Source: Subtercola boreus
Lineage (GTDB): Bacteria > Actinomycetota > Actinomycetes > Actinomycetales > Microbacteriaceae
Direction of reading: 5' to 3'
Assembly (NCBI RefSeq): GCF_003399625.1
Contig: NZ_NBXA01000002.1
Coordinates: 84,457-148,456 of the forward strand
DNA: 64,000 nucleotides
Shown: positions 37 to 19,391 of the stretch, one piece after another
Layout: each line of letters opens with the position of its first letter
How positions within the stretch are numbered: the first letter of the stretch is position 1
Position numbers and translations under genes: made by a program
Notes under the pieces: model-generated
Told to the model about the DNA's origin: nothing
What the model saw: only the letters and a program-made list of their open reading frames with translations
The model's database searches: none

Positions 37-834
37 TCAGACCGCGGCGATGCCGTGGCCGTCGAGAGAATCGGCGACGATCGTGAGCCCCTTGAGCCCG
101 GGCATCTTGGCGATGTGGGCGTCGATTGCGTTGATGGCCTTACGACCGTCGATGCCACCGAAGATGTGGCCCATCACGTGCTTGACCTCGGTCTGGTCCA
201 TGATGGTCGAACCCACCGGGCCCCAGAACTTGCCGAGCGCGAACCGCGCGAACTTCTGGGCGAGCAGGCTCTTGCCAAGTCGCTCACGGGCCTGGGTCGC
301 GTAGAAGGCCACGTGGCGGGCCTCCTGCATCGCGATGCGCTTCAGTAGCTCGGCGAGCACGGGGTGGCCCTCGATCTCGGCGAGTCGCTTGTAGGCGGCC
401 ACGGCCGACCACTCGTTCGCGGCGCCCCAGATCATGTGCACGGCGATGAAGTCCTTGCCGACCAGGTTCGAGAGCACCGACTGCTTCACGGGATCGATGC
501 GATCCTTCCAGCCGAGCTTCAGGCGCTTCGACTTCAGCTCGTCGAACTCGAGCTCGATGTCGTGCATCCGGAGCACATCGGCGAGAGCTTCGCCGTGCCA
601 GAACTCCTCACGGTTCCACATCGTCATGAAGCCGGTCACGTCTTTGTCGCGGTGCGAGGGGGTGACGAGCATGTCGCGCATGTAGCAGACCGTGTGGTAT
701 TCGACGTCGGCCATGTACCGGATGACGCGGAGGGTGTCGTCCGGCAGCGGATTCGTGCGGAACGTCTCGAAGTCGAGGTCTTCCCAGGCGACGTTCTTCG
801 ACGTCTTCGTGTAGTTGTCGATGTCGAAGGCCAT
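37..834 (-). CDS. Ferritin-like diiron protein, candidate lipid desaturase/oxygenase
   Basis: 265-residue soluble protein of the ferritin-like/acyl-ACP desaturase fold. A full set of diiron ligands can be read from the sequence: Glu45, Glu77-x-x-His80 (in REEFWHGEA), Glu141 and Glu171-x-x-His174 (in QEARHVAF), spaced like the four-helix carboxylate-bridged diiron enzymes. The family activates O2 to desaturate or hydroxylate acyl chains. There is no signal peptide or membrane segment. It is the last gene of the minus-strand lipid operon, 149 bases after the PlsC gene. Because the operon also carries fatty acyl reductase and acyltransferases, and alkyl-DHAP synthase lies opposite, I infer that it oxidises an acyl or ether-linked alkyl chain. 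The substrate is not shown by sequence. A degenerate paralogue lies at 5549-6364. Confidence 0.85.
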   Translation of the reverse strand: MAFDIDNYTKTSKNVAWEDLDFETFRTNPLPDDTLRVIRYMADVEYHTVCYMRDMLVTPSHRDKDVTGFMTMWNREEFWHGEALADVLRMHDIELEFDELKSKRLKLGWKDRIDPVKQSVLSNLVGKDFIAVHMIWGAANEWSAVAAYKRLAEIEGHPVLAELLKRIAMQEARHVAFYATQARERLGKSLLAQKFARFALGKFWGPVGSTIMDQTEVKHVMGHIFGGIDGRKAINAIDAHIAKMPGLKGLTIVADSLDGHGIAAV

Positions 835-983
835 GGGCGCTTGAGGCGGTGCACGTTGCCGGGCGGTGCCTCATCCTCCTGTTTCTGAAAGTGCCAAGTT
901 CTGGCGGTCGGGTTCTACCTATTGTGCGGGGTGAATCTGAAAATTGTAGCCATGCCGGCTGAGCAGCATCGGTTGTGAGACTT

Positions 984-1676
984 CTACTGCCACACTCGGC
1001 GTCTGGTCGGGCCGGTCGGTGTCGCTGTGGCCTTCCACATCCGCCGCCAGCCGGCCTCTGGCTGCCCCTCGGTCTCCCGGGGAACGACGACGTCGGCCGG
1101 CGACCTCCGTGCGCCGTACCAGCCTCGAGACTCCTCGGCCAGCCCGACCTCGATCGCCTGGGCGATACTCTCGGTCACTGCGGATGATTCGTCGCCGGAG
1201 CCCGCTCGGATTGGTCGGGAGAACAGCACCGAGACGCGGGGACGCCCGGGCTCCACCGTGAGGCGCCACGGCGGGAGGGCCCGGAAGGTGCCGAGGAGCG
1301 CCACCGGCACGAGCGGCACACCGGTGCGGATGCCGAGAGCGGCTGCCCCGAGGTCGAGCGGAGCGAGCGATCCATCGCCGGTGCGGGTCGTCTCGGCGAA
1401 CAGCAGCACGCTGGTGCCGCTCTTCAGCAGGGCGGAGAGGCGGCTGGCCGACCGGAGGCTGAGGGCCTGGTCCACGAGGCCCCGGATGCCGCCCCGCGGT
1501 TCCACGGCAACCGAGACCAGCCGTGGCACGACGCTTCGGAGGGCATTCCGCACCAGCGCCTCGTCGAGCTCCGACGGGTGGTTCGCCACGAAGATGAACG
1601 GCCCGCCCTGCTCCTTCACGTGTTCGAGACCGTGGACGGACGGCGTGACGGCGAGCCGGATCGCGAGCCCGGCCAT
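984..1676 (-). CDS. PlsC-type 1-acylglycerol-phosphate acyltransferase family protein
   Basis: 230-residue member of the PlsC/LPLAT family, which transfers acyl groups to glycerol-phosphate-type acceptors at the membrane. The H-x4-D catalytic motif is present (NHPSELDEA), followed by a variant of the FPEGTR block (FAETTRT) and the VPLVPVAL block. The start was set at the ATG overlapping the last base of the upstream LarA-like gene's stop (TGATG), so the two genes are translationally coupled. The reading frame stays open far upstream, but that part is antisense-style shadow. Within the ether-lipid locus it could acylate sn-1 of DHAP or sn-2 of the alkyl-glycerol phosphate; its altered EGT block (ETT) may mean a distinct substrate. 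Confidence 0.82.
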   Translation of the reverse strand: MAGLAIRLAVTPSVHGLEHVKEQGGPFIFVANHPSELDEALVRNALRSVVPRLVSVAVEPRGGIRGLVDQALSLRSASRLSALLKSGTSVLLFAETTRTGDGSLAPLDLGAAALGIRTGVPLVPVALLGTFRALPPWRLTVEPGRPRVSVLFSRPIRAGSGDESSAVTESIAQAIEVGLAEESRGWYGARRSPADVVVPRETEGQPEAGWRRMWKATATPTGPTRRRVWQ

Positions 1677-3229
1677 CAGCTGACCTCGGAGATACTCACC
1701 GGTGCACCGTGCACGTAGGTGATCGCCGGGGCGAGCCCGACCGAGCCGGAGGCCATCTCGAGGGCGTCGGCGAGGGTCGAGGCCGACTTGAAGCCGAGGC
1801 GCCTGGTCGAGCCGTGGTCGCCGCCCACGAAGATGATCTCGCCGAGGTGGGCGATGGCCGGAGCAGCGGAGTACCAGGCGTGGAACGGGTGCAGCGCATG
1901 GTTCGACGAGCTGGTCTGGTAGACGTGCCGGTACCACGGGTCGGCTGCGAACTTCTCCTCGAACTGCTCCGAGATGACGGCCGGATCGGTGCTCTGGGTC
2001 AGTACCTCGGCGAAGAAGTCGATGTAGGCGGGGTCGTGGAGCGGGTGGAACCACGGGGTCAGCGGGTGGTAGAAGATCGCGGTTCCGCCGGCCCGCACGA
2101 CGGGCTCCGCGGTAGCCCCGTTGAAGATCTGGCCGAGTCCGAGGGCTGCCGCCGTGACGGGGTTCAGGCTCGACCCGATGGTTCCCGGGTTCGGGATGCC
2201 GAACAGCGCGACATCCGCCGGCCTGTCGAACTGGGCGACCTGCTGCTGGGCCAGGAACGCCTCGGTCAGCGGATGCACGGAGCTGGGTTTTCCCGCGACC
2301 ACCGAGGTGACCCCGTAGCCGACCCCCGAGACCTGAGCCAGGCCGATCCGGGCGCGGGCGGGAAGGATGCGCGTGGCAGCCTGGAGCCCGGCGGAGAGGG
2401 CGCGGTCGGTGAGGCTCCACTCCCGCTCGCGCTTGCTGAGGAAGGCGGAGGCGGGGCCGGTGGGCTCCGGGGTGAGGGTGACGTCGACGGTGAAGACCTG
2501 GGCCTTGTCGCCGATGGTGTCGACGAGGTCGTCGAACGCGTCTGTGCTGATTTCAGCTGCCGCTGCCGCCGTGCGTACCGCGAACGAGCCGCGGGCCCGC
2601 GCCGTCTTCGCACCGATCAGCTTGGTCGCAACGGCCGCAGCGCCCTCGTTGCCGACCGCCGTGGCGAGGCGCACCGAGATGACGAGGTCGCTCGACGCGA
2701 CCCGACCGTTGACCTCGATCGGGGTTCCGTCTGCCAGCTCGCCGACCACCTGGAGGTTCTCGTCTTCGGCGTCGTGGCTTCGCACGTGGTCGGGTGCGAA
2801 CGAGGCGTACACGCGCTCGCCCAGCACGCGCTGCAGGTCGTGCGCGGTGAGGCGGCGCCGGAGCCCTGTCGCCGCGATGAGCTCGACGTCGTCGACGCCG
2901 GCTGCCGCCGCCCGTTCGAGCACGAGTTCGATGACGCGCTGCCGCACATCCGGAGCCGTACGGCTCGTGACCGGCTGCGAGAGGTCTTCGAACACGATCG
3001 TGACGCGGGAACCACGCTTCAGGAGCGCACGGAGCGGTTCGCTGTCGACGGGGGCGTCGAGTGCACGGCTGATCGCCTCGTCGAGCGAGCGGATGCCCTG
3101 CAGCGCCTCGGGCGGGTACAGCACGCTCGCATCGACCGGGAGCCGCTCGAGAAGAACCTTCTCGCCCTGGAACACGACGAGCGGAGGAGTCTGGGCATCG
3201 ACGCTCAGAACGAAGCCTGGTCTACTCAT
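1676..3229 (-). CDS. LarA-like (DUF2088) protein lacking the usual nickel-pincer residues
   Basis: 517 residues, LarA/DUF2088 family. True LarA is a lactate racemase using a nickel-pincer nucleotide. The fold markers remain (EDLSQPVTSRTAP, AATGLRRRLT, RSHDAEDE, ADGTPIEVNG). However, the block that normally reads PHxxxGxSGGxK, with the histidine and the pincer-binding lysine, is replaced by RLATAVGNEGAAAVATKL, and the TGxHR histidine is changed. No larB, larC or larE maturation gene is visible in the window. The gene overlaps the upstream reductase gene by 8 bases and couples to plsC downstream by 1 base, so it is an integral member of the lipid operon. The start is the ATG beginning MSRPGFVLS; the longer open frame upstream lies inside the reductase gene. 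Function unknown; a racemase or epimerase role is possible but not supported by the active site. Confidence 0.8.
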   Translation of the reverse strand: MSRPGFVLSVDAQTPPLVVFQGEKVLLERLPVDASVLYPPEALQGIRSLDEAISRALDAPVDSEPLRALLKRGSRVTIVFEDLSQPVTSRTAPDVRQRVIELVLERAAAAGVDDVELIAATGLRRRLTAHDLQRVLGERVYASFAPDHVRSHDAEDENLQVVGELADGTPIEVNGRVASSDLVISVRLATAVGNEGAAAVATKLIGAKTARARGSFAVRTAAAAAEISTDAFDDLVDTIGDKAQVFTVDVTLTPEPTGPASAFLSKREREWSLTDRALSAGLQAATRILPARARIGLAQVSGVGYGVTSVVAGKPSSVHPLTEAFLAQQQVAQFDRPADVALFGIPNPGTIGSSLNPVTAAALGLGQIFNGATAEPVVRAGGTAIFYHPLTPWFHPLHDPAYIDFFAEVLTQSTDPAVISEQFEEKFAADPWYRHVYQTSSSNHALHPFHAWYSAAPAIAHLGEIIFVGGDHGSTRRLGFKSASTLADALEMASGSVGLAPAITYVHGAPVSISEVS

Positions 3230-5552
3230 GGGTGATTTCTTTCGGGCTCGGGCCGAGGGCCGGGGTGGAGGATGCGCTCTGCACGATGTCGCCGCGCAGC
3301 AGCTCGCCGACGGTGTCGAATCGGCTGTGGTTGTGGTCGCTCCACTGGTGGATGCGCCAGTGCTTCTGGGTCGCGTGCTGGAACAGTGCGGCGTCGGGGT
3401 TGACAGCCTGCGGGTTGCCGACGAGTTCGAGCCAGGCACGGTCGGCGATGCTGTCACCGTACGCGTACGACTTCTTCAGGTCGATGCCCTCACGCTCCCC
3501 GTAGAGGCGGAGCCACGCGGCCCGGGCCTCGTCGACGAGCGGGGGCTTCGAGAGGTGGCCCGTCCAGATGCCGTCCTTCGAGTGCATGTGGCTCGACACG
3601 ACCTCGTCGAACAGGGTGACGAACGGTTCGACGAGCACATCGATGGCCCCGGTGACGAGGATCGTGCGGTGCCCGGCCTCGCGGTGCTTCCGGATCTGGC
3701 GCACGGCCTCCGGGCGGATCCGCTGCAGCAGCACGTCGCCGACGGTGTCGTGGATCAGCTGGCGGAGCGCCTGCTCGTCGACACCCTCGTACCGCCGGTA
3801 GAACGTGCGGATGAACTCGCCCCGGTCGCGTCGGTCGGCGGCGAGGTACTTCGGGAGCGAGCCGAACAGGTTCGCGAGCTCCTGCGGCCACTTCGCACGA
3901 TCGAGGCTGGCGAGCCGCACCCAGAGGTACTGCTCGACGATGTTCGAGGCGAGAACGGTGCCCTCGAGGTCGAAGAACGCGGCCGCCTCGGGGTTCTGGG
4001 GCAGGGGCTTCTCGACCTGGGCCTTCGCGCGGGGCCGCGAGCTGAAGGTGCGCATCAGCGTCGTGACGGCCGGGAAGTGAACCTCCTGCAGGTAGTTGTC
4101 CCAGTCGATCTCGGTGGCGTCGAAGCCGAACGTCTGCCGGGCATCCGGCGGCAGCGTGTCGTTCAGCGCCGCCGTGCGGGAGTCGTCGTAGATGATCTCG
4201 GCCTGCGTGTAGTTCTGGTAGAGGTCGCTGTAGGCACGGAGGAGCTCGAGATCGGTCTGCCGGGCGGAGGCCTGCCGCATGAAACTGCGGGTGGTCTGGG
4301 TGGAGGGCAGGCGGAGCAGCGTGCGCTGCAGCAGCTTGTTCGCACGCTCACCCGTGCGGAGGCTCCGCGCGATCGCCCGGGCGCCGGGGAAGTCCCAGTA
4401 GGGGGTGCGGATGTGGCCGCGCTGCTCGTCGGGGATCGGATTCGCGCGGAAGTACTTCAGCACGTTCTCGTAGATCTCGCGGAAGGTCAGCGGGTTGCGC
4501 CCACCGGAGGAGAGGTGGAAGTACTTCGGGTCGGCGGGGGCCGGCGGGTTGGCCGCCACGGCGAGCGTCGCGTTCACGACGATGTCGACCGGGATGATGT
4601 CGAGGATGCTGTCGGGCAGTCCCGGGAATTCGGGGACGAGCCCGCGGCCGTAGGCGATGATGAGCGGATCCGCCACCTTGAAGCCGTCGATCCAGCCCGG
4701 GAACGGGTGCTTCAGGGCGCTCTCGATGATCGCGGGGCGCACGACGGAGAGCCGGTGGCCGTTGCCGGCCCAGAGCTCCTCGGCGACCCGCTCGCTCATC
4801 GATTTCGTGAAGGCGTACACATCCGCCCAGCCGACGCTCTGCGCGCGGGTGCGCCCGTAGTCGACGAGGCGCTTCGTGACCCATTCGGTGCGACCGATCT
4901 CGGCCGCGATGGCGACGGCGTGCGGGCCGACCTTGCCGTTGTCGAGCTTCGCGTCGGCGATCATCTTGCGGAGCACCTCGGGGCGCCTCGAGGAGGCCTC
5001 GACCGTGGTGCGGGCGGCCAGCGCGGCCGCCATCTCGTCACGCCACTGGATGGTGTGCTTCAGGCTGGCCTCGAGAACCGTGCCCTTGTTGATGCCGCCG
5101 ACGTACGCGGTCGACACGTGCACGACGTGCGGGTCGCTGCCCGTCGCGAGCAGAGCTTCGTAGAGGCCGACGGCACCGCCGACGTTCGTCTTGAACGCCT
5201 CGTCGATGGGCGGGTCGAAGGAGACGGTCGAGGCGCTGTGGATGAGCACGTCGAGGTCCGCAGGAAGGCCCGCCACCGATCCCATGCTCGACTCGATGAC
5301 GGAGATTCGCTCCGTCATCGCACGGTCGACCTCCTCCTGGCCGACGCGTTCACGCCACTTCGAGAAGACGGGCTTTCGCAGCAGGCTCTTCAGCCGCGCC
5401 TGGCCGGTGAGCGAACCCTTCGGCCTGATGAGGAGGGTCATCCGTGTCGTGGGGTAGTCGGCGAGGAGCTTCTCGAGAATGGCCTGGCCCACGAAACCGG
5501 TCGCGCCGGTGAGCATGATGTGCTGGCCCTCGAGGGGGGAGAAGGCGCTCAC
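3222..5552 (-). CDS. Fatty acyl-CoA/ACP reductase fused to C-terminal HAD-IB phosphatase-like domain
   Basis: 776 residues, two domains. Residues 1 to about 500 form a male-sterility/fatty-acyl-reductase extended SDR: NADPH-binding GATGFVG at 16-22, a HVSTAYVGG strand around 145-153, and catalytic Tyr246-x3-Lys250 (YAFTK). This family reduces activated fatty acids to fatty alcohols. Residues from about 523 form a HAD-IB domain with motif I FDLEGTV (Asp528, Glu530) and a YGDSIAD metal site near the end. The second Asp of the normal DxDGT nucleophile motif is Glu here. It overlaps the upstream paralogue by 4 bases (ATGA) and the LarA-like gene by 8. Inference: it supplies the fatty alcohol that alkyl-DHAP synthase exchanges for the acyl chain, like animal FAR1. 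The HAD domain may dephosphorylate a lipid phosphate or be structural. Confidence 0.88.
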   Translation of the reverse strand: MSAFSPLEGQHIMLTGATGFVGQAILEKLLADYPTTRMTLLIRPKGSLTGQARLKSLLRKPVFSKWRERVGQEEVDRAMTERISVIESSMGSVAGLPADLDVLIHSASTVSFDPPIDEAFKTNVGGAVGLYEALLATGSDPHVVHVSTAYVGGINKGTVLEASLKHTIQWRDEMAAALAARTTVEASSRRPEVLRKMIADAKLDNGKVGPHAVAIAAEIGRTEWVTKRLVDYGRTRAQSVGWADVYAFTKSMSERVAEELWAGNGHRLSVVRPAIIESALKHPFPGWIDGFKVADPLIIAYGRGLVPEFPGLPDSILDIIPVDIVVNATLAVAANPPAPADPKYFHLSSGGRNPLTFREIYENVLKYFRANPIPDEQRGHIRTPYWDFPGARAIARSLRTGERANKLLQRTLLRLPSTQTTRSFMRQASARQTDLELLRAYSDLYQNYTQAEIIYDDSRTAALNDTLPPDARQTFGFDATEIDWDNYLQEVHFPAVTTLMRTFSSRPRAKAQVEKPLPQNPEAAAFFDLEGTVLASNIVEQYLWVRLASLDRAKWPQELANLFGSLPKYLAADRRDRGEFIRTFYRRYEGVDEQALRQLIHDTVGDVLLQRIRPEAVRQIRKHREAGHRTILVTGAIDVLVEPFVTLFDEVVSSHMHSKDGIWTGHLSKPPLVDEARAAWLRLYGEREGIDLKKSYAYGDSIADRAWLELVGNPQAVNPDAALFQHATQKHWRIHQWSDHNHSRFDTVGELLRGDIVQSASSTPALGPSPKEITHE

Positions 5553-6364
5553 GCGGCTGCCTTCACGCCGTAGCGCCTGGTCGCCCTCGTCATGACCTTC
5601 AGCCCGCCCAGGCCCGGAAGTGCATCGACACCCCGGTCGACGCCGAAGACTCCAGCACGCCCCTCGGCGTCACTGAACAGGTACTTCATCATCAATCGGG
5701 TCTCCTGGATCGGTTGCTCGTGCGTGCCCGTCGGCACCCACGAGCGCCTGAGCGACGACCGGGTGAGCTTCCGAGCCGATACCGATTCTTCCAGTCTTCG
5801 CACGGTTTCGCCTTCGAAGAACTGCAGATGCCGGTCGCGGAGCTTCTGGAAGGCGGCCAGAACCTCGACCAGCGCGGGATTCGGGTCGTTCTTCGACAGC
5901 TGGGAGTAGGACACCCGGCTCACCAGCTCGTCGATGTAGCCGCGAGTGACGTGGCCCGCGATGATGTCCTCACCGATCAGGTTCGAGCGGATGGCCGTGA
6001 CGATCGGCGACACCCTGTCGATGGCCTCCCGGGTGAATCGCACGACACCGGAGCGTGCGCGGTGCGTCACGGGAGCGAAATCCGGGTGCACGGCGATGAT
6101 GCGGTCGAACGCATCCGCGATCCAGAACTTCTCAAACGCCCACGTCGCGAGGAACGCCGTGAGCCGCGCATCCTTGTGGCTCGGGGTCACCAGCACGTCG
6201 CGCATGTGGTGCATCGTGAAGTCCTCGAGGTCGCGCAGGTACGCCAGCGTCTGAAGCGTCTGGTCGGTGAGCGGATGCTCGGCGAACGCCGCCAGCGGCA
6301 GGGTCGCCTCGTGGCTGCCCGCCGCGGTGCGGGTGTATTCGCGGATGTCGAAGTCAGAGGTCAT
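5549..6364 (-). CDS. Ferritin-like paralogue with a degenerate diiron site
   Basis: 271 residues, clearly related to the diiron protein at 37-834 (shared MRDxLVTPSHKDA stretch and C-terminal PGLxGL). Aligning the helices, Glu47, Glu146 and His179 are kept. The positions of Glu77, His80 and Glu171 of the intact copy are Lys79, Ile82 and Arg176. Three of six iron ligands are therefore lost, so it probably cannot bind a dinuclear iron centre. First gene of the minus-strand operon; the start ATG has a GGAG box six bases upstream. It overlaps the reductase gene by 4 bases. Inference: a regulatory or scaffold partner of the intact enzyme, as in heterodimeric diiron systems with one inactive subunit, or a substrate-binding protein. 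Confidence 0.82.
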   Translation of the reverse strand: MTSDFDIREYTRTAAGSHEATLPLAAFAEHPLTDQTLQTLAYLRDLEDFTMHHMRDVLVTPSHKDARLTAFLATWAFEKFWIADAFDRIIAVHPDFAPVTHRARSGVVRFTREAIDRVSPIVTAIRSNLIGEDIIAGHVTRGYIDELVSRVSYSQLSKNDPNPALVEVLAAFQKLRDRHLQFFEGETVRRLEESVSARKLTRSSLRRSWVPTGTHEQPIQETRLMMKYLFSDAEGRAGVFGVDRGVDALPGLGGLKVMTRATRRYGVKAAA

Positions 6365-6393
6365 GGTGGTCTCCGGTCGGGCAGAGGAAGTGA

Positions 6394-6447
6394 GTATTCA
6401 TACAGCGGTGCATCAGTCGTTCGTCGCCATCACGTATCGTGATTGCC
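6394..6447. promoter_or_regulatory. Divergent promoter region of the lipid locus with operator-like palindrome
   Basis: The gap between the two operons (6365-6447) carries a 15-bp inverted repeat, ATCACGTATCGTGAT, at 6429-6443 with perfect 6-bp arms. It overlaps TATCGT (6435-6440), which stands seven bases before the SDR ATG and looks like a -10 box. A second short palindrome GTATTCATAC lies at 6394-6403 towards the minus-strand operon. The layout suits a repressor that blocks the plus-strand promoter. No regulator gene lies in the locus itself. Confidence 0.5.
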
Positions 6448-7218
6448 ATGGTTACGGCAATGGTCACGGGTGGCACCTCGGGTATCGGTGCGGCGTTCGC
6501 GCGCGCACTGGCAGACCGGGGTGACAACCTGGTCATCGTCGCACGCGACGAAACACGACTCGCCGAGACCGCCGAGTCGCTGCGCACAGAATACGGCATC
6601 GATGTCGAGACGATCTCGGCCGACCTCGGTGAGCGCGCCGATGTGCTGCGCGTGGCCGCCCGTCTCGAAGACACCTCCTCGCCCATCGACATGCTGGTGA
6701 ACAACGCAGGTTTCGGCGTGCACGCCTCTCTTCTGGCCGTCGACACGACGCCGCACGAGCGCGCGATCGAGGTGATGATCCGCGGCGTGCTCATGCTGGG
6801 GGCCGCTGCCGGGCGCACGATGCGTGAGCGCGGGTCGGGAACGATCGTCAACGTGTCGAGCGTGGCCGGCTTCATCACGATGGGGAGCTACTCGGCCGTC
6901 AAGGCCTGGGTCGCGTCCTACAGCCAGGGCCTCTCGGTCGAGCTCCGAGGTTCGGGAGTGCAGGTCACGACGCTCTGCCCCGGCTGGGTGAAGACCGAGT
7001 TCCACGCCCGGGCGGGCATCCGGGAGTCGTCGATCCCGAACTTCCTCTGGGTCGATGTCGACGAGCTGGTGGCGGCATGCCTGGCCGATGTGCAGAAGGG
7101 CAAGGTCATCTCGGTGCCCTCCCGCCGGTTCCAGTTCCTGATGTTCGTGATCAAGCACGCTCCGCGGAGCGGAATCCGCTGGGCGTCGGGAAAGATCTCG
7201 TCCAGCCGCAACGACTGA
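6448..7218 (+). CDS. Short-chain dehydrogenase, candidate acyl/alkyl-DHAP reductase
   Basis: About 256 residues, classical SDR. It shows the NADP(H)-binding TGGTSGIG near the N-terminus, the NNAG motif, the catalytic serine segment VSSVAG and Tyr-x3-Lys in YSAVK. In eukaryotic ether-lipid synthesis an SDR (PexRAP, fungal Ayr1) reduces 1-alkyl- or 1-acyl-DHAP, and the position here beside alkyl-DHAP synthase suggests the same step; this is inference. First gene of the plus-strand operon. Starts are possible at GTG 6439, ATG 6448 and ATG 6460. I chose 6448 because a TATCGT -10-like box lies seven bases upstream and no Shine-Dalgarno sequence is seen. Confidence 0.85.
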   Translation: MVTAMVTGGTSGIGAAFARALADRGDNLVIVARDETRLAETAESLRTEYGIDVETISADLGERADVLRVAARLEDTSSPIDMLVNNAGFGVHASLLAVDTTPHERAIEVMIRGVLMLGAAAGRTMRERGSGTIVNVSSVAGFITMGSYSAVKAWVASYSQGLSVELRGSGVQVTTLCPGWVKTEFHARAGIRESSIPNFLWVDVDELVAACLADVQKGKVISVPSRRFQFLMFVIKHAPRSGIRWASGKISSSRND

Positions 7219-7270
7219 CAGGGTGCCGCACGCGTTTCGGTTCCACAGGCGGAGTGGGTACTCTGGGTTG

Positions 7271-8035
7271 GTGCAGTTCGGCAACAGATACACCTCTAAG
7301 GCCCAAGCGGGTGCCCGCTTCGTCGCCCAGCGCCTGCTGCTGAAGCCGGTCATCTGGTCGATGGTGCATGTGACCATCACCGATCGCGCCCTTCTCAAAG
7401 ACGTCAGGGGCCCGTACATCGTGGTGGCGAACCATTCCAGCCACCTGGATGCGCCCCTCATCCTCGGGTCGATGCCCTCGCGCCTCTCCCGCTACCTCGC
7501 GGCCGCTGCTGCGGCGGACTACTTCTTCGACGTGTGGTGGCGGAAAGGCCTCACCGCGCTGTTCTTCAACGCCTTCCCGGTCGACCGCAGCGCGAACGCC
7601 CGGTCGACCGGCTTCACGGGCAAGCTCCTGAAGGCTGGAGTGCCGCTGCTCGTCTTCCCCGAGGGCACGCGCTCGAAAGACGGCACGATCGCCCCGTTCA
7701 AGGGCGGCGCCGCCGCGCTCTGCCTCAAGGCGGGCATCCCGTGCATCCCGATGGCCCTCGTCGGCGCCACGCAGGCCATGCCGCGCGGCCGCAACTGGCC
7801 CGTGCCCGGAAGGCCGCCCGTCCGGGTGCGCTTCGGCCAGCCGCTCATCGCCGCCGAAGGCGAGAACGTCACCGACTTCAACGACCGCATCGAGAAGGTC
7901 GTGCGCGAGATGCACGCGGCCGAGTTCGCGCTGTTCCTCGCCGAGACGGGCGCCAACGTCCACAATCACCCCACTGTCGAATCTGCCGATGCAACCGGCG
8001 ACTCCGACGAGCACCCCCGTGAAGGAGCCGCATGA
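7271..8035 (+). CDS. PlsC-type lysophospholipid/DHAP acyltransferase
   Basis: About 254 residues. It has all canonical LPLAT blocks: NHSSHLDAP (H-x4-D), the FNAFPVDR block, FPEGTRSKDG and the IPCIPMAL block. The family acylates glycerol-3-phosphate, lysophosphatidate or DHAP. I place the start at GTG 7271, because TACTCT lies exactly six bases before it; the frame also permits GTG 7223. It follows the SDR gene by 52 bases and overlaps the alkyl-DHAP synthase gene by 4 bases, which suggests that it makes acyl-DHAP, the substrate of that enzyme, or acylates the sn-2 position afterwards. The EGTR block is intact, unlike that of the PlsC protein at 984-1676, so the two probably act at different steps. 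Confidence 0.85.
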   Translation: MQFGNRYTSKAQAGARFVAQRLLLKPVIWSMVHVTITDRALLKDVRGPYIVVANHSSHLDAPLILGSMPSRLSRYLAAAAAADYFFDVWWRKGLTALFFNAFPVDRSANARSTGFTGKLLKAGVPLLVFPEGTRSKDGTIAPFKGGAAALCLKAGIPCIPMALVGATQAMPRGRNWPVPGRPPVRVRFGQPLIAAEGENVTDFNDRIEKVVREMHAAEFALFLAETGANVHNHPTVESADATGDSDEHPREGAA

Positions 8036-9702
8036 CCGACGTCAAGCACATGAAATGGTGGGGCTGGGGCGTCGAAGGGGTGGGGTTCCACCACGAGGAC
8101 AAGCCGGGCTTCGCGCCGTTCGTCGTCAACGCCGTCGGCATCGATGTGTGGCGGGAGCCGGTTCCCCCGGTCGCCTTCTCCGAACTCGACGTTCCCGCAT
8201 CCCAGGCACCCGCAGAGCTCCTCGAAGCCCTCACGACGATCGTCGGGCCCGAGTTCTCGACCGTCGACGATGAAGAGCGCGTCGTGCACACGTACGGCAA
8301 GAGCATCCGTGACCTGATCCGTGTGCGTGCCAGCACGTTCGCGCGGGTGCCCGACGTCGTGGTCTACCCGGCAGACGAGAGTGCGGTGCAGCGCATCGTC
8401 GACCTCGCGGTGTCGCTCGACGCCGTGGTCATCCCGTTCGGCGGCGGCAGCAACATCGTCGGTTCGCTCGAGCCGATGCCCACCGAGACCCGTACCGTGA
8501 TCTCGCTGGACATGGGCCGGCTCTCGCGCGTGCTCGACATCGACGAGTACTCCGGGCTCGCGGTCATCCAGGCGGGCGTCCTCGGCCCCGACATGGAGGA
8601 GCAGCTGCAGGCCCGTGGCTGGACCATGGGCCACCAGCCCGACAGCTTCACCTACTCCACCCTCGGTGGCTGGATCGCAACCCGCTCATCGGGCATGCAG
8701 AGCGACAAATACGGCGACATCGCCGACATCACGAAGGGCCTCCGGGTCGTGCAGCCGGGCAAGCTGCTGGTCGTCCGCCCCATCCCCTCGTCTGCCACAG
8801 GCCCGAGCGTGCGGGAGGCCATCCTCGGCAGCGAGGGTCGTCTCGGCATCATCACCGAGGCCACCGTGCAGGTGCACCGCCTGCCCGAGAAGCGCGAGGT
8901 CATCGGCTACCTCTTCCGCGACTGGGAGTCCGGCCTCGCCGCCATGCACGACATCAACACCAGCGATGCCGCGCCCTCCATCACCCGGGTCTCGGATGCC
9001 CGTGAGACTGCGTTCTCGTTCTCGACCTCGAAGGCCTCGCACGGCATCAGTGGCCAGGTGCAGAAGGCGCTGTTCGCGTTCCTGCAGAAGCGCAGCTGGA
9101 ACCTCGACGAGGTCTGCCTCTCCTTCATCGGCTACGAGGGTTCGGCCGCCAACGTCGCACACCAGAAGAGCCTGGTCGGCAGCATCGTGAAGAAGCACGG
9201 GGCGATCACCCTCGGCAAGGGCCCGGGTACCCTCTACGACCAGAAGAAGTTCGACACGCCCTACCTCCGCGACTTCCTCCTCGACCGCGGTGCGGCGGCG
9301 GATGTCTCGGAGACCTCCGCCCCGTGGTCCCGCCTGAAGCCCCTCTACGACAACGTCTTCGCGGCGGCCAACAAGGCCTATGACTCGCTCGGCGAGAGCG
9401 GCTGGATCATGTGCCACCTCTCGCACTCGATGCACTCCGGCGCCTGCCTCTACTTCACCTTCGCCTTCACGCACGACGGCGTGGATCCCCTCGCACAGTA
9501 CGACGTGGTGAAGTCCGCCATCCAGCAGGCCTTCATCGATTCGGGCGGAACGCTCTCGCACCACCACAGCGTCGGTGTCGAACATTCCCAGTGGACGGAG
9601 CAGGACATCTCGGTGGCCGGCGCAGACCTCATCCAGGGCATGTTCACGGCCGTGGACCCGGGCAAGAACCTGAACCCGGGGAAGATCCTCCGCCGGGACT
9701 GA
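8032..9702 (+). CDS. Alkyldihydroxyacetonephosphate synthase (AGPS-type FAD enzyme)
   Basis: 556 residues. FAD-linked oxidase fold with the AGPS-specific signatures: N-terminal KWWGWG, FAD-binding PFGGGSNIVGS around 135-145, GHQPDSFTYSTLGGW near 200-214 followed by the SSGMQSDKYGDI segment, SHSMHSGACLYFTF, and the catalytic triple histidine HHHSVG at 510-512. The enzyme replaces the acyl chain of acyl-DHAP with a fatty alcohol, forming the glycerol ether bond. This is the committing step of ether-lipid and plasmalogen synthesis and needs no net redox change. Last gene of the plus-strand operon, overlapping plsC by 4 bases (ATGA) and followed at once by a strong terminator. It is the anchor for reading the whole locus as an ether-lipid cluster; an alternative as a generic FAD-linked oxidase (GlcD type) is unlikely given these motifs. 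Confidence 0.93.
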   Translation: MTDVKHMKWWGWGVEGVGFHHEDKPGFAPFVVNAVGIDVWREPVPPVAFSELDVPASQAPAELLEALTTIVGPEFSTVDDEERVVHTYGKSIRDLIRVRASTFARVPDVVVYPADESAVQRIVDLAVSLDAVVIPFGGGSNIVGSLEPMPTETRTVISLDMGRLSRVLDIDEYSGLAVIQAGVLGPDMEEQLQARGWTMGHQPDSFTYSTLGGWIATRSSGMQSDKYGDIADITKGLRVVQPGKLLVVRPIPSSATGPSVREAILGSEGRLGIITEATVQVHRLPEKREVIGYLFRDWESGLAAMHDINTSDAAPSITRVSDARETAFSFSTSKASHGISGQVQKALFAFLQKRSWNLDEVCLSFIGYEGSAANVAHQKSLVGSIVKKHGAITLGKGPGTLYDQKKFDTPYLRDFLLDRGAAADVSETSAPWSRLKPLYDNVFAAANKAYDSLGESGWIMCHLSHSMHSGACLYFTFAFTHDGVDPLAQYDVVKSAIQQAFIDSGGTLSHHHSVGVEHSQWTEQDISVAGADLIQGMFTAVDPGKNLNPGKILRRD

Positions 9703-17978: not shown

Positions 17979-19391
17979 TCAGCTGCCCCGGATCGTCTCG
18001 TACGCCGCCAGCGCGCGCTTCCGCGACTCGCCGAGGTCGACGATCGGCTCCGGATACCCGGGCGTTCCCGCCTCGGGCACGTACTGGTTGATGTACTCTC
18101 CGCCGCCGTCGAACTTCTTCGCCTGCAGCTCCGGATTGAACACGCGGAAGTAGGGTGCGGCATCCGCTCCCGAACCCGCGACCCACTGCCAGTTCATCGT
18201 GTTGCTGGCCGGGTCGGCATCGACCAGGGTGTCCCAGAACCAGGCCTCGCCGAGCCGCCAGTCGAGCAGCAGATTCTTGACGAGGAACGAGGCGGTGACC
18301 ATCCGGATGCGGTTGTGCATCACCCCGGTCTGCCAGAGCTCCCGCATGCCGGCATCGACGATCGGAATGCCCGTCTGGCCCTGCTGCCAGCGTCCGAGCA
18401 CCTCGGGATCGGGGTCGTTCCACGGGAACGCGTTGAACGCCGGGCGCATGTTCTCTGTGCCGAGCTTCGGCCAGTGGTAGAGCAGGTGGTAGGCGAACTC
18501 GCGCCAGCCGATCTCCCGGAGGAAGGATGCCGCACCGTCGGCCGACGACGCATCCCGCATCCCGTGCCAGACCTGGAACGGGCTCATCTCCCCGTGCCGG
18601 AGCCGTGGCGACATTCTGGAGGTCGAATCCTTCGAGGGGAAGTCGCGCTCGCGCTGGTAGTCGCCGAGCCCCTCCTTCTCGAAGGCGCGGAGTTCGGCAT
18701 GGGCTGCCTTCTCGCCGGGCGTCCACGTGTCGCGGAGTCCGGCGGCCCAGTCGGGCCTGGTCGGCAGGAAGCCCCAGTCGCCGAGCTCCTCACTCGACAC
18801 AGCCTTCGCTCCGTTCGCGCCGGTCGCACCGGTGACGTGGCCGGCCGAGGGTGCAGGCAGTGGATGCCGCGGGGTGGGCGCGCCGAGGCATGCCCGCCAG
18901 AACGGGGTGAACACCTTGTACGGCTGGCCCTGCCCCGTGCGGAGCGTCCACGGTTCGAAGAGCAGGTTGGCCTGGAAGCTCCGTGCCTCGACGCCCGCCT
19001 CCTTCAGACTGGTCTTGATCGACGCGTCGAGTTCCCGCTCCGCGAGACCGTAACGGCGGTTCCAGTACACCGCGCCGGCCTTCGTCTCCCGCTGCAGTCC
19101 GGCGATGACATCGGCAGCGGGGCCGGAGCGGAGGGTGAGGCTGAGGCCCCGGGCATCCAGTTGATCGGCGAGAGCGGTGAGCGAATGGTGCAGCCACCAC
19201 TTCGCGGCCCCGCCGTTCGGCCTGATGCCGGGGGAGTCGTCGCTGAAGACATCCGCGTTCGAGTAGTCGGTCTCTTCGTCGAAGACGTAGACGCAGACAA
19301 TCGGTTCGCCGCGTTCGGCGGCGGCGTGCAGGGCCGGATGATCGCCCACCCGCAGGTCGTCGCGGAACCAGACGATGCTGGGGGAGGCCAT
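17979..19391 (-). CDS. phrB: Deoxyribodipyrimidine photolyase
   Basis: 470 residues, class I CPD photolyase/cryptochrome family, which repairs UV pyrimidine dimers using light and FADH-. N-terminal antenna domain begins IVWFRDDLRVGDHPAL. The FAD domain shows GWREFAYHLLYH, the MHNRIRM loop, DWRLGEAWFWDTLVDAD, NWQWVAGSGADAAPYFR and a RVFNP end. The length is usual. The start ATG overlaps the last base of the upstream marR stop (TGATG), so the pair is a coupled operon and the regulator probably controls photolyase expression. Confidence 0.95.
   Translation of the reverse strand: MASPSIVWFRDDLRVGDHPALHAAAERGEPIVCVYVFDEETDYSNADVFSDDSPGIRPNGGAAKWWLHHSLTALADQLDARGLSLTLRSGPAADVIAGLQRETKAGAVYWNRRYGLAERELDASIKTSLKEAGVEARSFQANLLFEPWTLRTGQGQPYKVFTPFWRACLGAPTPRHPLPAPSAGHVTGATGANGAKAVSSEELGDWGFLPTRPDWAAGLRDTWTPGEKAAHAELRAFEKEGLGDYQRERDFPSKDSTSRMSPRLRHGEMSPFQVWHGMRDASSADGAASFLREIGWREFAYHLLYHWPKLGTENMRPAFNAFPWNDPDPEVLGRWQQGQTGIPIVDAGMRELWQTGVMHNRIRMVTASFLVKNLLLDWRLGEAWFWDTLVDADPASNTMNWQWVAGSGADAAPYFRVFNPELQAKKFDGGGEYINQYVPEAGTPGYPEPIVDLGESRKRALAAYETIRGS

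What the first reader, a model, noticed from the sequence alone, without database searches (positions are those of the whole stretch)
37..9702. Compact eight-gene cluster that matches a complete ether-lipid (plasmalogen-type) pathway
The sequence shows, on two divergent operons, a fatty acyl reductase, two PlsC acyltransferases, an AGPS-type alkyl-DHAP synthase and an SDR: the same chemistry as animal FAR1, GNPAT, AGPS and PexRAP. All junctions within each half are overlapping or short. Two ferritin-like proteins and a LarA-like protein are built into the operon and have no known role in ether lipids. Aerobic bacteria are thought to make plasmalogens through a CarF/TMEM189-type membrane desaturase, which I do not see here. 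A previously undescribed aerobic actinobacterial route is possible.
Basis: partly seen in the sequence, partly recalled or inferred. Interest (0 to 1): 0.9.

Follow-up and report, generated by a model that had tools for sequence, protein, structure and literature searches.

The report
Aerobic ether-lipid genes with new desaturase
This bacterium (a Subtercola) carries one gene cluster that likely makes animal-style ether membrane lipids, and a ferritin-like protein in it is predicted to form the vinyl-ether bond of plasmalogens without the enzyme that animals and myxobacteria use, which would explain the plasmalogen-type signal reported in its aerobic relatives.

Summary
Window 37-9702 has eight genes in two divergent operons; a ninth, a DAGK-type lipid kinase, follows 20 bp on, beyond the window edge. 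The organism is a Subtercola. AGPS and FAR homology is strong. Six genes ([AGPS-PlsC-SDR] and [FL1-FAR/HAD-FL2]) lie together in 59 of 80 named FL2 loci. In 199 Microbacteriaceae genomes FL2 (59) and close AGPS (55) co-occur in 53. CarF (PF10520) was found in 0 of 299 Microbacteriaceae; the same search rings in 12 of 296 Actinomycetota. FL2 keeps six diiron ligands in 81 of 81 copies and its model is closest to acyl-ACP desaturases; FL1 is a paralogue that lost the site. Four Subtercola species, one matched by strain, are reported to contain dimethylacetals, the plasmalogen signature. I propose FL2 (with FL1) as the vinyl-ether desaturase: inferred, not shown. The LarA-like protein looks dead: catalytic and nickel motifs and LarC are missing. 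Intact LarAH14 proteins sit in a conserved FAR/HAD-dehydrogenase-LarA operon, usually with PlsC; 0 of 71 such genomes has a strong AGPS. LarAH14 may be a nickel-dependent replacement for AGPS, a bolder and weaker claim.

The parts
8032..9702 (+). AGPS homologue (alkyl-DHAP synthase), predicted ether-bond maker
   Evidence: PF01565+PF02913; best PDB match Dictyostelium ADPS 2uuu 389.9 bits, guinea-pig ADPS 4bby 288 bits (species names recalled); His-His-His motif at 510-512 and Tyr474 align with HHH615-617 and Tyr578 of 4bby
7223..8035 (+). PlsC-b, predicted GNPAT/AGPAT-type acyltransferase
   Evidence: PF01553 1.8e-21
6439..7218 (+). SDR, predicted alkyl/acyl-DHAP reductase (PexRAP role)
   Evidence: PF00106 9.7e-42
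5549..6364 (-). FL1: ferritin-like paralogue without a complete metal site; predicted partner of FL2
   Evidence: no Pfam hit; E77->K79, H80->I82, E171->R176; these three lost in 68 of 68 FL1 ORFs; AF2 pLDDT 85.9
3222..5552 (-). fatty acyl-CoA reductase fused to HAD-IB hydrolase
   Evidence: NAD_binding_4 6e-45, Sterile 1.6e-8 (35.0 bits, cut-off 35.4), HAD 2.4e-33; PDB 7eoz fatty acyl-CoA reductase 8e-45
1676..3229 (-). LarA-like protein, predicted catalytically dead LarAH14 remnant
   Evidence: NF052592 491 bits, cut-off 740; catalytic His and the GGxK and His-rich motifs lost; LarC not found in genome
984..1676 (-). PlsC-a acyltransferase
   Evidence: PF01553 3e-12
37..834 (-). FL2: ferritin-like diiron protein, predicted vinyl-ether (delta-1') desaturase

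Best explanation
The Subtercola cluster encodes a fatty-acyl reductase, two PlsC acyltransferases, an alkyl-DHAP-synthase homologue and an SDR that likely build 1-O-alkyl glycerolipids, and a ferritin-like diiron-type protein (FL2) that, with its paralogue FL1 that has lost the metal site, is predicted to desaturate the alkyl chain to the vinyl ether of plasmalogens in place of CarF. Steps: FAR reduces acyl-CoA/ACP to fatty alcohol; a PlsC acylates DHAP; AGPS swaps the acyl for the alcohol; the SDR reduces the ketone; the other PlsC acylates sn-2 (all inferred by homology with the animal route). FL2 then uses O2 at its diiron site to remove the C1'/C2' hydrogens (inferred). FL1 is a structural or docking partner (inferred). 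The LarA-like protein is a dead remnant of an older LarA operon (sequence loss shown; origin inferred). The DAGK-type kinase may phosphorylate alkyl- or alkylacyl-glycerol (inferred).
For: AGPS: 389.9 bits to a solved ADPS, catalytic motif kept. FAR domains. All six core genes in 59 of 80 named FL2 loci. Family sample of 199: FL2 59, close AGPS 55, both 53, all 53 on one contig and within 12.3 kb; FL1 in 59 of 59 FL2 genomes. When unlinked the link mostly holds: 8 genomes (7 Jiangella, Naasia) with FL2 apart have AGPS (788 bits or more) and FAR elsewhere. CarF 0 of 299 Microbacteriaceae, while the search rings in 12 of 296 Actinomycetota. FL2 ligands 81 of 81; fold nearest acyl-ACP desaturases, R2lox next at 15.4. 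Dimethylacetals in S. vilae, S. frigoramans, S. boreus, S. lobariae (PMC5945732 passages); S. vilae DB165 is the strain of L004, which carries the cluster; an FL1 protein is named from S. frigoramans. PMC7472656 passages say the S. boreus and S. frigoramans DMAs were confirmed by GC-MS.
Against: Six genomes (4 Agromyces, 2 Leifsonia) keep FL1-FL2 with no real AGPS (best 74-83 bits over part of the protein) and no FAR, so the pair can do something without this pathway; they form one clade with an untested Glaciibacter, nested among linked copies, which suggests secondary loss. Two genomes (L043, L061/L082) have FAR and FL2 but no AGPS; both carry a LarAH14 operon instead. FL1 is not near FL2 in 12 of 80 loci (nine of them Jiangellaceae or Actinopolymorpha; some at contig ends). 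FL2 looks soluble (ferritin-like bundle; no membrane prediction was run) and its Pfam desaturase score is below cut-off (16.9 vs 22.7); a shared fold does not show function. A later paper lists no DMA for five Subtercola strains (PMC9287328 passages), although DMA can be miscalled C14:0 2OH by the MIDI software (PMC7472656 passages). PlsA/PlsR were not searched for.
Confidence: 0.5

Rival explanations
1. The cluster makes only saturated alkyl (plasmanyl) lipids; FL2/FL1 is an acyl-chain desaturase or oxidase whose product is unrelated to the ether bond, and the acetals have another source.
For: FL2 fold is nearest to desaturases of acyl-ACP, not of lipids; FL1-FL2 persists without AGPS/FAR in six genomes.
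Against: FL2 lies with FAR and AGPS in 59 of 80 loci and goes with AGPS in 53 of 59 genomes, also when unlinked in eight genomes; no CarF found to make the acetals.
Confidence: 0.27
2. The acetals arise from fatty aldehydes released by the reductase, or from an anaerobic-type reductive PlsA/PlsR route, and the cluster serves a different lipid.
For: ElbD mutants of Myxococcus lose an i15:0 aldehyde (PMC9131029 passage); PlsA/PlsR occur in some Actinobacteria (PMC9702350 passage); not searched here.
Against: The FAR matches a solved fatty acyl-CoA reductase over domain and C-terminus (alcohol formation by that type is recalled); i-16:0 DMA alone is 6.9-17.0% in four Subtercola species.
Confidence: 0.1
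3. The LarA-like protein is an active nickel enzyme that supplies a 2-hydroxy fatty acid or another step of the pathway.
For: It is kept at full length, without stops, in seven Subtercola loci and Labedella.
Against: Catalytic His, GGxK and His-rich motifs lost in the window and 8 of 8 of these loci; LarC not found in the genome while the control rings in 6 of 14.
Confidence: 0.06

Closest known systems
Animal peroxisomal/ER plasmalogen pathway (FAR1, GNPAT, AGPS, PexRAP, TMEM189/PEDS1)
   Same: Homologues for FAR, acyltransferase, AGPS and SDR steps
   Different: No TMEM189/CarF found; two ferritin-like proteins instead; one bacterial cluster
Myxococcus elb operon and MXAN_1676-1674 with CarF
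   Same: FAR, acyltransferase, AGPS, HAD hydrolase and dehydrogenase genes in operons; aerobic (PMC9131029 passages)
   Different: There the desaturase is CarF; the word ferritin does not occur in that review
Clostridial PlsA/PlsR
   Same: Product class (plasmalogens)
   Different: Reductive, anaerobic, no DHAP route (PMC9702350 passages); not searched here
Acyl-ACP desaturases (PF03405), with M. tuberculosis DesA2
   Same: Fold and diiron ligand set of FL2
   Different: Pfam score below cut-off; 15-19% identity in the ten desaturase rows; operon context
LarAH14/15/16 nickel-pincer family (NF052592)
   Same: LarA-like protein matches over nearly its whole length (491 bits)
   Different: Below the 740-bit cut-off; catalytic and metal motifs lost

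Membership tests
AGPS / alkyl-DHAP synthase | VAO-type FAD domains and closest solved relative an ADPS | tested here: met
AGPS / alkyl-DHAP synthase | active-site HHH and Tyr578 (catalytic role recalled, guinea-pig numbering) | tested here: met
   HHH510-512, Tyr474 align
AGPS / alkyl-DHAP synthase | alkyl-DHAP synthase activity | not testable with these tools
   needs enzyme assay
Fatty acyl-CoA reductase (FAR1 type) | NAD_binding_4 domain and a solved FAR as closest relative | tested here: met
   153.8 bits; 7eoz
Fatty acyl-CoA reductase (FAR1 type) | Sterile C-terminal domain | tested here: inconclusive
   35.0 bits against a cut-off of 35.4
CarF/TMEM189 (PF10520) desaturase | Lipid_desat domain protein in the genome | tested here: not met
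   0 in own genome, 0 of 299 family genomes; the 14 controls were silent, but the search rings in 12 of 296 phylum genomes
Acyl-ACP desaturase (PF03405), for FL2 | match over the family cut-off | tested here: not met
   16.9 bits vs 22.7
Acyl-ACP desaturase (PF03405), for FL2 | diiron ligand set E, ExxH, E, ExxH on a ferritin-like bundle | tested here: met
LarA nickel-pincer enzymes | catalytic His, cofactor Lys, Ni-ligand His (assigned by motif, by analogy with PMC12393405) | tested here: not met
   lost in window, 7 Subtercola and Labedella; present in the other 37 of 46 rows
LarA nickel-pincer enzymes | LarC for cofactor synthesis in the genome | tested here: not met
   PF01969 0 of 1, control 6 of 14; LarB and LarE not searched
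PlsA/PlsR plasmalogen synthase | plsA/plsR genes | not tested
   no search made
Aerobic plasmalogen pathway | vinyl-ether glycerolipids in the organism | not testable with these tools
   literature DMAs in other Subtercola strains only

The most novel reading that the evidence does not exclude
Actinomycetota hold two interchangeable ether-bond makers and two interchangeable vinyl-ether desaturases. The ether maker is either flavin AGPS or a nickel-pincer enzyme, LarAH14, which would use hidden redox at C2 of acyl-glycerol-3-phosphate to swap the acyl chain for a fatty alcohol. The desaturase is either CarF or the ferritin-like FL2/FL1 pair. Subtercola runs AGPS+FL2 and still carries a dead LarAH14 as a fossil of the switch.
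Probability: 0.25. Interest if true: 0.95.

Novelty: new variant of a known kind. Interest (0 to 1): 0.8.

Why it matters
[quoted passage not shown] 2000 as cited in PMC5945732 and PMC7472656), and my searches found no gene assigned to them. The cluster names testable genes and a candidate second chemistry for the vinyl-ether bond, from a diiron protein of another fold class than CarF/TMEM189. It also gives a context for LarAH14, a nickel enzyme family whose Frankia member showed no activity on the substrates tested in 2020 (PMC7583248 table).

Tried and rejected
LarA as a working nickel racemase in this cluster: rejected on motif loss and missing LarC. FL2 as CarF homologue: no PF10520 match. 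FL1 fold search gave no PDB match at E<=0.001 (best R2lox 0.036), so FL1's kinship rests on its similarity to FL2. Literature: searches for Microbacteriaceae with dimethylacetals or DMA, for actinobacterial or bacterial plasmalogen genes, for Rubrobacter ether lipids, and for plasmalogen + ferritin-like + desaturase (0 papers) found no paper assigning genes to these acetals or proposing a ferritin-like vinyl-ether desaturase; I read listings and passages, and the library holds open-licence papers only. Frondihabitans, reported without DMA, could not be tested: it is not among the 80 loci kept of 255, which does not show absence. Agreia (low DMA) has the six core genes (L066). The AGPS/LarAH14, CarF/LarAH14 and FL2/AGPS tables are not corrected for phylogeny.
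Full report
OBSERVATION. The window is bases 84457-148456 of contig C2 of a 4.12 Mb genome. Its FL2 matches that of Subtercola boreus P27479 at 100% and its FL1 matches there at 96%, so the organism is a Subtercola (Microbacteriaceae). The minus-strand operon continues past the window edge: a DAGK_cat/YegS_C lipid kinase starts 20 bp after FL2. One junction, PlsC-a to FL2, is 149 bp; the others within each half overlap or are 4 bp.

THE ENZYMES. The AGPS homologue matches solved alkyl-DHAP synthases over most of its length (389.9 bits to 2uuu, 288 to 4bby) and keeps the HHH and Tyr578 positions (their catalytic role is recalled, not from a call). The FAR has NAD_binding_4, a Sterile domain just under its cut-off and a fused HAD-IB hydrolase, and matches the solved fatty acyl-CoA reductase 7eoz. 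Two PlsC proteins and an SDR complete the set.

CONSERVATION. FL2 loci were fetched from named genomes: 255 relatives, best 80 kept. AGPS, PlsC-b, SDR, FL1, FAR/HAD and FL2 all lie in 59 of the 80 fetched stretches (some genes cut or partial). LarA is in 9 of 80: seven Subtercola, Labedella and the MAG L043. In 199 family genomes: FL2 in 59 (tallies 60; I dropped G113, where only FL1 matched), close AGPS in 55 (tallies 59; I dropped G017, G063, G064 and G142 at 285-313 bits), both in 53 (Fisher 8e-39, not corrected for kinship). FL1 in 60 (tallies 63; I dropped three at about 100 bits). Of 21 handles sent for AGPS and FAR, 20 genomes were searched (L069 not held): 17 without AGPS in the fetched stretch and 3 controls. 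Of the 17, seven Jiangella and Naasia have both genes elsewhere; Actinopolymorpha has FAR and a distant AGPS (311 bits); L043 and Haloactinopolyspora have FAR but no AGPS; four Agromyces and two Leifsonia have neither. The three controls have both. The six form one clade with the untested Glaciibacter L069, nested among linked FL2.

CarF. PF10520 gives 0 in the genome and 0 of 299 Microbacteriaceae. The 14 control genomes were silent, so I used the phylum sample, where it rings in 12 of 296. PF10520 is wider than true CarF, so those 12 are candidates.

PHENOTYPE. Passages of PMC5945732 give dimethylacetals for S. vilae DB165, S. frigoramans, S. boreus and S. lobariae (i-16:0 DMA 6.9-17.0%); the DB165 genome carries the cluster (L004). 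Agreia is reported low and Frondihabitans without. PMC9287328 (passages) lists no DMA for five Subtercola strains but 3.9-15.6% '2OH-C14:0' in four of them. PMC7472656 (passages) reports that a peak so named by MIDI in Kineococcus was anteiso-C15:0 DMA by GC-MS and that DMAs are only named with the anaerobe database. So part of the negative record may be mislabelling (inference). PMC12823222 (passage) lists a-15:0 aldehyde/DMA in two Frigoribacterium. Papers on Lacisediminihabitans and Herbiconiux, genera with the cluster, name no DMA (passages).

LarA. The window protein matches NF052592 (LarAH14/15/16) at 491 bits, cut-off 740. Of 46 aligned LarA proteins, nine (window, seven Subtercola, Labedella) have Arg for the catalytic His and lack the GGxK and His-rich motifs; the other 37 keep them. 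I assign the motifs by analogy with the residues in PMC12393405 (passages). LarC was not found in the genome, with the control ringing in 6 of 14. I read the protein as dead.

WHERE LIVE LarAH14 SITS. In 296 Actinomycetota, 92 have a match and 71 pass the cut-off. Around the 20 best, the FAR C-terminus lies upstream in 18 and a PlsC downstream in 19 (stretches of 4.6 kb or less). Of 15 longer stretches, 13 show FAR/HAD-MDR dehydrogenase-LarA (nine of the 13 from the same genomes as those 20), 10 of them with PlsC next; the two with sub-cut-off LarAs (L119, L120) show neither. LarC and LarE are beside it in L043, L082 and three of the 13. In two of family f18 (L113, L114) a PlsY gene precedes FAR. 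AGPS at 300 bits or more is in 44 of 296 and in 0 of the 71 (2 of 71 at 240 bits or more; Fisher 3.6e-6, uncorrected). Sub-cut-off LarA goes with AGPS in 12 of 21, the own genome included; several of the other nine are fragments. L043 and Haloactinopolyspora, the two FL2 genomes with FAR and no AGPS, both carry a LarAH14 over the cut-off (898.7 and 901.2 bits) in this operon. PF10520 genomes carry LarAH14 in 10 of 12. Distant FL2 relatives (95-296 bits) are in 12 of the 71 and in none of the 12 PF10520 genomes (which took 80 of the 116 handles first listed). Family f18 is probably Rubrobacteraceae: relatives of an f18 LarA are named Rubrobacter radiotolerans (67%) and Rubrobacter sp. (72%). 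No f18 genome is among the 77 with an AGPS match at E<=1e-40. [quoted passage not shown]). Together this makes LarAH14 a candidate AGPS substitute; the hidden-redox mechanism is my inference.

VERDICT. The ether-lipid reading is strong. FL2/FL1 as the vinyl-ether desaturase is the best-supported missing step but unproven; the AGPS-free Agromyces and Leifsonia pairs are the main result against it. LarAH14 as a nickel ether synthase is a lead that the window uncovered through its fossil copy.

Noticed in passing
L043:825-9821; L082; L106-L118: Conserved actinobacterial operon FAR/HAD - MDR alcohol dehydrogenase - LarAH14, mostly with PlsC, at times with LarC/LarE or PlsY; LarAH14 over its cut-off and AGPS of 300 bits or more never in the same genome (0 of 71) in a sample of 296.
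   Followed up: partly
G344, G394, G448, G481, G502, G513, G544, G554, G585, G595 (family f18): PF10520 (CarF/Lipid_desat) genes in actinobacteria, ten of twelve with LarAH14; f18 is probably Rubrobacteraceae. A review passage (PMC9131029) says true CarF beyond myxobacteria was reported only in Leptospira; PF10520 alone does not prove true CarF.
   Followed up: partly
PMC7472656, PMC9287328, PMC7033078, PMC5945732: The MIDI peak 'C14:0 2OH' reported in several Microbacteriaceae may be anteiso-C15:0 dimethylacetal, so plasmalogens could be overlooked in aerobic actinobacteria.
   Followed up: no
L037, L039, L046, L065, L072, L078: Agromyces and Leifsonia keep an FL1-FL2 bicistron without AGPS or FAR; its function there is unexplained.
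   Followed up: partly
L119, L120: A sub-cut-off LarA group (family f22) with intact motifs that goes with a distant AGPS but lies away from FAR.
   Followed up: no
L075, L057 (same place as G135 by coordinates): Some related clusters show AGPS or FAR broken into partial matches (Homoserinibacter L075, Arenivirga L057/G135), perhaps decay or assembly error.
   Followed up: no
window 17979-19391: ORF that reads like a deoxyribodipyrimidine photolyase (by eye, no domain search).
   Followed up: no
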